Source: Cyclobacteriaceae bacterium
GTDB lineage: Bacteria; Bacteroidota; Bacteroidia; Cytophagales; Cyclobacteriaceae
Direction of reading: 5' to 3'
DNA: 64,000 bases
Assembly (NCBI GenBank): GCA_958296015.1
Contig: CATQIH010000001.1
Coordinates: 124,001-188,000, forward strand
The translations under genes and the position numbers were made by a program. The stretch's first letter is position 1. Every line of letters begins with the position of its first letter. This document shows positions 22,967 to 23,315 of the stretch, piece by piece. The notes beneath the pieces were generated by a model, which was given only the letters and a program-made list of their open reading frames with translations, had not been told where the DNA came from and made no database searches.

Positions 22967-23007
22967 TGTTGAAAGGGCTTCTTAAACTGAAACTTTATGA
23001 AGTAAAC

Positions 23008-23109
23008 TATACTACGGTACATTTGGCTTAAAGTGGGCTGTGAGGACACAGCCCACGGCCTTCGCGCCTCGGTTTGTGTCTCCACAAACCGAAACTGTAC
23101 CGTAGTATA
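23008..23109 (-). mobile_element. MITE-like element copy B (102 bp)
   Basis: Reverse complement identical to copy A; perfect 9-bp TSD GAAGTAAAC (22999-23007 / 23110-23118). Confidence 0.95.
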
Positions 23110-23315
23110 GAAGTAAACATTAACTGGGCGGCATCAACCAATGAAAACGTGGACATCACAATAGTAAGCTCCAAAGGAGAAACAGTTTACAGATATTCCT
23201 TTGAAAAGGAAGCCAATTACTTGTCAAGACATCAGGATTAAAAGCAGGTGTATATATTTTCACGTTAAAAGGCAGCAAAGATATTATAAAGAAAAAACTA
23301 ATCATCAACCCATAA
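23110..23315 (+). pseudogene. Remnant of a T9SS C-terminal sorting domain (frameshifted)
   Basis: EVNINWAASTNENVDITIVSSKGETVYRYSFEKE, then after a frame change LLVKTSGLKAGVYIFTLKGSKDIIKKKLIINP*. Confidence 0.75.

What the first reader, a model, noticed from the sequence alone, without database searches (positions are those of the whole stretch)
22999..23118. Family of 102-bp MITE-like elements with 14-bp TIRs and 9-bp target-site duplications
Seen directly: copies at 8612-8713, 23008-23109 (inverted), 40175-40276 and 56499-56600 are identical over 102 bp by eye. All have perfect 14-bp TIRs (TATACTACGGTACA/TGTACCGTAGTATA). Each is flanked by a different 9-bp direct repeat: ATCGTCCAT/ATCGCCCAT, GAAGTAAAC x2, GGTTAAAAG x2, GCTGTATTC x2. 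Established: TIRs plus fixed-length TSDs are the hallmark of DDE-transposase transposition, and non-autonomous short forms are MITEs. Inference: the identity indicates recent spread. No matching transposase is in this window, so mobilisation would be in trans.
Basis: partly seen in the sequence, partly recalled or inferred. Interest (0 to 1): 0.92.

Follow-up and report, generated by a model that had tools for sequence, protein, structure and literature searches.

The report
IS4-type MITE family carrying REP-like hairpins
The four identical 102-base repeats are copies of a small parasitic DNA element that was recently spread by the transposase of a now-broken IS4-type insertion sequence found elsewhere in the same genome; it belongs to a known kind of element, but its interior is built of REP-like hairpins, and a second bacterial family has independent elements with the same ends around a different hairpin.

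Summary
All four copies are identical over 102 bp, with perfect 14-bp TIRs and 9-bp target duplications. The whole genome (5.9 Mb) holds 11 identical copies plus 5 of a two-SNP subfamily. It also holds about 22 older relatives (64-232 bp), two of them in this window (31315-31420, 56256-56362). Nearly all have 9-bp duplications. The parent element was found: a 1213-bp IS in two copies with the same 14-bp TIR, coding for an IS4-type (YREK) DDE transposase. Both copies carry the same frame-breaking 14-bp insertion. Botryobacter ruber has two intact 1190-bp relatives with the identical TIR and 9-bp duplications. The 33 duplications show a palindromic target preference. The same-genus genome and 39 other relatives lack the 102-mer, so the spread is recent and local. 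In another family (G095), MITEs with the same TIR and 9-bp duplications enclose unrelated palindromes. The element works as a trans-mobilised IS4-type MITE, a new member of a known kind. MITE birth around REP palindromes is an open, testable extra.

The parts
8612..8713 (+). MITE copy 1 (102 bp), TIRs 8612-8625 and 8700-8713; TSD ATCGTCCAT/ATCGCCCAT
8630..8651 (+). internal hairpin A, CGGTTTGTG-GAGA-CACAAACCG (REP-like)
   Evidence: sequence; folding; the same hairpin class elsewhere in the genome
8665..8688 (+). internal hairpin B, GTGGGCTGTG-TCCT-CACAGCCCAC (REP-like)
   Evidence: sequence
22999..23118 (-). MITE copy 2 (23008-23109, inverted) with TSD GAAGTAAAC on both sides
40166..40285 (+). 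MITE copy 3 (40175-40276) with TSD GGTTAAAAG on both sides; between a TonB/SusC-like gene and an ECF sigma gene
56490..56609 (+). MITE copy 4 (56499-56600) with TSD GCTGTATTC on both sides
31315..31420 (+). old diverged family member, 106 bp, decayed TIRs, TSD 7/9
56256..56362 (-). old diverged family member, 107 bp, decayed TIRs, TSD 7/9

Best explanation
The repeats are a MITE family: non-autonomous elements moved in trans by the DDE transposase of a small IS4-family insertion sequence (1190-1213 bp, TIR TATACTACGGTACA). The transposase pairs the two 14-bp ends, excises the element and inserts it at a 9-bp staggered, palindromic target (consensus G-T-N-T-W-A-N-A-C), which leaves the 9-bp duplication. 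Shown: TIRs, TSDs, parent IS with identical ends, 26-bp similarity of one MITE end to the IS right end, recency. Inferred: cut-and-paste chemistry, and that an intact IS copy was present during the burst and has since been lost, broken or left out of the assembly. The interior consists of two REP-like hairpins of a class that elsewhere flanks RAYT genes. They are most likely captured passengers that vary freely in loop length and are not the engine of movement.
For: Identical 102-mers with different perfect 9-bp TSDs: of the 16 young copies, 13 have perfect and 3 one-mismatch TSDs, and of 19 complete older ones 13 perfect and 3 one-mismatch. Two 1213-bp ISs in the same genome with the same perfect 14-bp TIR, one with TSD ATCGAGCAC x2. 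Transposase relatives match NCBIfam IS4 models and Pfam DDE_Tnp_1, with the YREK residues (Y260, R263, E267, K274) invariant in 12 homologs. Botryobacter ruber: two intact copies with identical TIR and 9-bp TSDs. More distant relatives (about 33-37% identity) also give exact 9-bp TSDs. The MITE right end matches the IS right end at 24 of 26 positions. Symmetric target preference, p about 7e-8. The 102-mer is absent from the same-genus genome G001.
Against: No intact transposase with these TIRs is in the assembly: both IS copies share a 14-bp insertion plus a 1-bp indel. One IS copy lacks a TSD. The assembly is a 66-contig draft, so an intact copy could be missing. No individual empty site was aligned. 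Transposition was not measured.
Confidence: 0.94

Rival explanations
1. The elements are REPIN/BIME-type repeats spread by a RAYT (HUH tyrosine transposase) acting on the hairpins, and the TIRs are incidental.
For: The internal hairpins belong to a class that flanks RAYT genes in other Cytophagales and occurs free-standing in this genome.
Against: Fixed 14-bp TIRs shared with an IS4-type IS, and 9-bp TSDs; to my knowledge HUH enzymes of this type make no such duplications. Elements cut down to 64-71 bp with most of both hairpins gone still have TIRs and perfect TSDs. The own-genome RAYT at L137 has different hairpins.
Confidence: 0.03
2. The hairpins arose inside the MITE, and free-standing hairpins are its debris.
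For: C. burnetii QMITE2 shows truncated MITE copies that look like REPs (PMC5896051).
Against: The same hairpin class is multi-copy in genomes without these TIRs, such as G266, G258, G034 and G074, and flanks RAYTs in G266, G258 and G074. Most free-standing hairpins seen have other stems (GGTCTGTG/CACAGACC).
Confidence: 0.08
3. The copies are conserved functional hairpins (terminators or RNA structures) inherited vertically.
For: Strong fold, -61 kcal/mol, z -10.5; 15 of 16 young copies lie between genes.
Against: Unique 9-bp duplications at each site; absence from the same-genus genome and other relatives; no Rfam match in the window.
Confidence: 0.01

Closest known systems
IS4 family, small 9-bp-duplication members (IS10 subgroup incl. 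ISAba1; IS4Sa subgroup)
   Same: YREK signature, about 1.2 kb, 9-bp duplications, palindromic target preference; plasmid tblastn hits include ISAba1-annotated transposases at about 32% identity; subgroup features from PMC2266710.
   Different: Ends begin TATACTACGG, not CT (IS10) or CA (IS4Sa), although several relatives found here begin CA(C/T)ACTACTGGACAT. Full-length relatives score just below NCBIfam cut-offs (139 versus 152 bits). Subgroup not settled; ISfinder could not be consulted.
MITECca01 of Cardinium (Bacteroidota endosymbiont), parent IS982-type (PMC9769881)
   Same: Lineage-specific MITE burst with a short retained stretch of the parent IS behind the TIR.
   Different: Other IS family; parent still intact there; no REP hairpins reported in the passages read.
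QMITE2 of Coxiella burnetii (PMC5896051)
   Same: MITE of 150-190 bp, 7-11-bp duplications, contains a REP palindrome.
   Different: GTAG-type REP, unrelated sequence, no parent IS identified in the passages read; copies old and shared between strains.
BrickBuilt MITE of Porphyromonas gingivalis (PMC4596501)
   Same: Bacteroidota MITE with repeated internal modules of variable length.
   Different: TIRs like those of other P. gingivalis ISs (ISPg1/ISPg9), tandem 23-nt minisatellite, duplications of inconsistent length.
RAYT-REP systems (PMC6006769, PMC2817692)
   Same: Palindromes of the class found inside the MITE flank RAYT genes in other Cytophagales.
   Different: The MITE itself moves by TIR/TSD transposition, not as a REPIN.

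Membership tests
MITE | short, non-coding, perfect TIRs | tested here: met
   102 bp (family 64-232 bp), 14-bp TIRs
MITE | fixed-length target duplications at different sites | tested here: met
   9-bp TSDs; 26 perfect and 6 one-mismatch among 35 complete elements
MITE | parent transposon with the same ends | tested here: met
   1213-bp IS, same 14-bp TIR, same genome; intact relatives in Botryobacter ruber
MITE | mobilisation in trans observed | not testable with these tools
   inferred from TSDs and identity
IS4 family (the parent element) | DDE with Y-(2)-R-(3)-E-(6)-K | tested here: met
   Y260, R263, E267, K274 invariant in A1; criterion from PMC2266710
IS4 family (the parent element) | duplications of about 10 bp (7-13) | tested here: met
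   9 bp
IS4 family (the parent element) | NCBIfam IS4 equivalog cut-off | tested here: not met
   NF033591 139 bits versus cut-off 152; best model nonetheless
IS4 family (the parent element) | transposase gene without frameshift | tested here: inconclusive
   intact in Botryobacter; broken by indels in both G000 copies
IS10 or IS4Sa subgroup | CT (IS10) or CA (IS4Sa) ends | tested here: not met
   ends TA; several relatives have CA ends
REP family (internal hairpins) | multi-copy palindromes flanking RAYT genes | tested here: met
   8 of 30 RAYT loci plus L147; 28-53 copies per genome in the richer genomes (G000, G034, G074, G258, G266), control pattern 0-1; no cognate RAYT found in G000 itself
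REP family (internal hairpins) | GTAG or CGTC tag next to the hairpin | tested here: inconclusive
   no such tag seen next to hairpins A and B by eye; not tested systematically

The most novel reading that the evidence does not exclude
MITEs of this IS4-type group are born repeatedly around REP-type palindromes. In the window's genome the ends enclose YTGTG-N4-CACAR hairpins. In G095, a different family, the same 14-bp ends enclose CCTCACCCCC...GGGGGTGAGG palindromes in one set and CTTTGTGGC-type palindromes in another, with 9-bp duplications. REP hairpins would then favour MITE birth or mobility, for example by bringing the ends together or by deletion at hairpins during replication.
Probability: 0.3. 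Interest if true: 0.62.

Novelty: new member of a known kind. Interest (0 to 1): 0.38.

Why it matters
It gives a complete parent-IS/MITE pair with measurable recency, target preference and an intact transposase in a named species, so it can be assayed. It also shows that REP-like hairpins can travel as cargo of a TIR/TSD transposon, a second route by which such palindromes spread, and that MITEs with identical ends in two families carry different palindromes, which bears on how bacterial MITEs are born.

Tried and rejected
Rfam: no match in the window. The 102-mer: no match in plasmids. A 27-base pattern of its left end (TIR plus start of hairpin A): none in named GTDB genomes or viral contigs. 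Transposase in viral contigs: none confirmed. PDB sequence search with the transposase profile: none. A tRNA-like stretch at the 56499 insertion site: no tRNA called, with or without the insert. A literature search for these ends found only chance matches.

Full report
Observation. The four 102-bp copies, their perfect 14-bp TIRs and their 9-bp flanking repeats are exactly as described. The TIR matches exceed chance by about fifty-fold, and a 9-bp flank match with at most one mismatch occurs in 0.06% of random 102-bp intervals. The window also holds two old, diverged relatives, at 31315-31420 and 56256-56362, each with a decayed 7/9 duplication.

Genome-wide family. The host genome (G000, 5.9 Mb, 66 contigs) has 11 identical copies and 5 copies of a subfamily with two substitutions. 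It also has about 22 older relatives of 64-232 bp sharing the TIR and the same internal plan. All 16 young copies have a 9-bp duplication, 13 perfect and 3 with one mismatch. Of 19 complete older copies, 13 are perfect, 3 have one mismatch and 3 have none. The 33 duplications show a symmetric preference G-T-N-T-W-A-N-A-C (G1/C9 36 of 66, p about 7e-8). Fifteen of the 16 young copies lie between genes by a simple ORF test. The only same-genus genome held and 39 other relatives lack the 102-mer, apart from one weak 26-bp hairpin match.

Parent element. A search for the TIR found two 1213-bp elements bounded by the same perfect 14-bp TIR; the one at C26:83976-85188 has the duplication ATCGAGCAC. 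The protein is an IS4-type DDE transposase, with the YREK residues invariant across 12 homologs. Full-length homologs score best with an IS4 model but below its curated cut-off. Both copies carry the same 14-bp insertion and a further 1-bp indel, so the reading frame is broken. Botryobacter ruber (Hymenobacteraceae) has two intact 1190-bp relatives with the identical TIR and duplications GAACAAAAT and GAATTTTTA and shows no sign of the MITE in a search for the TIR. More distant relatives (about 33-37% identity) have TIRs such as TACAGTACTGGACATG and CATACTACTGGACATG, again with exact 9-bp duplications. One MITE end matches the IS right end at 24 of 26 positions, so the MITE derives from this IS group.

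Interior. The 102-mer folds into a TIR stem with two hairpins (-61 kcal/mol, z -10.5). Both hairpins share the tip YTGTG-N4-CACAR. Older family members keep the stems but vary the loops, often with a GC-rich module. The same hairpin class is free-standing in this genome and multi-copy in several other Cytophagales that lack these TIRs. In such genomes it flanks RAYT genes: G018 (L147, NF047646 match below cut-off) and 8 of the 30 RAYT loci fetched from an order-wide search. I therefore read the hairpins as a REP family that the MITE carries. No cognate RAYT was found in G000; its RAYT at L137 has other hairpins.

A parallel case. In an order-wide scan of the extended TIR only G000 and G095 (another family) are rich in copies. 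G095 has elements of 114-400 bp with the same TIR, most with perfect 9-bp duplications, but their interiors are unrelated palindromes (CCTCACCCCC...GGGGGTGAGG, and a CTTTGTGGC type). Twelve of 14 exact occurrences of the first palindrome lie beside such TIRs and two do not. This suggests separate MITE births around palindromes, but the sample is two genomes.

Known relatives. IS4-family subgroup criteria come from PMC2266710: size and 9-bp duplication fit IS10 or IS4Sa, the TA ends fit neither. MITEs with REP content (QMITE2, PMC5896051), lineage-specific Bacteroidota MITEs (PMC9769881) and modular MITEs (BrickBuilt, PMC4596501) are precedents. The finding is therefore a new member of a known kind, with an open question about why the interiors are REP palindromes.

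Uncertainties. No intact transposase is in the assembly, no empty site was aligned base by base, and transposition was not measured. The census is limited to what the search tools return.

Noticed in passing
L147 (G018) and loci L157, L158, L161, L164, L171, L173, L176, L177: RAYT genes of Cytophagales flanked, mostly on both sides, by YTGTG-N4-CACAR hairpins that are multi-copy in most of those genomes: a REP family I have not seen named.
   Followed up: partly
G095 loci L245-L256, L260-L273: A second MITE set with the same 14-bp TIR and 9-bp duplications but unrelated palindromic interiors; only a degraded transposase remnant was seen there (L276).
   Followed up: partly
L066, L067 (G000 C3:72900-73400, C18:39300-39900): Tandem arrays of about 100-bp and 124-bp units made of the same hairpins, outside the MITEs.
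   Followed up: no
L137 (G000 C20:361700-363400): RAYT gene flanked on both sides by arrays of another hairpin, GGATTCAGTYACARACTGAATCC: an apparently separate RAYT-REP system.
   Followed up: no
L136 (G000 C46:31786-31913): A 128-bp family member without duplication sits at the C-terminal end of a truncated RAYT-like gene.
   Followed up: no
window 21686-21985 and 24254-24553; 22193-22615: Adjacent genes with CBM6 and ricin-type lectin domains share a 300-bp stretch at 97% identity, and 141-bp repeats lie nearby.
   Followed up: partly
window 56490-56609: The fourth copy sits in a stretch resembling a tRNA 5' half, next to a phage-type integrase gene; no tRNA is called with or without the insert.
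   Followed up: yes
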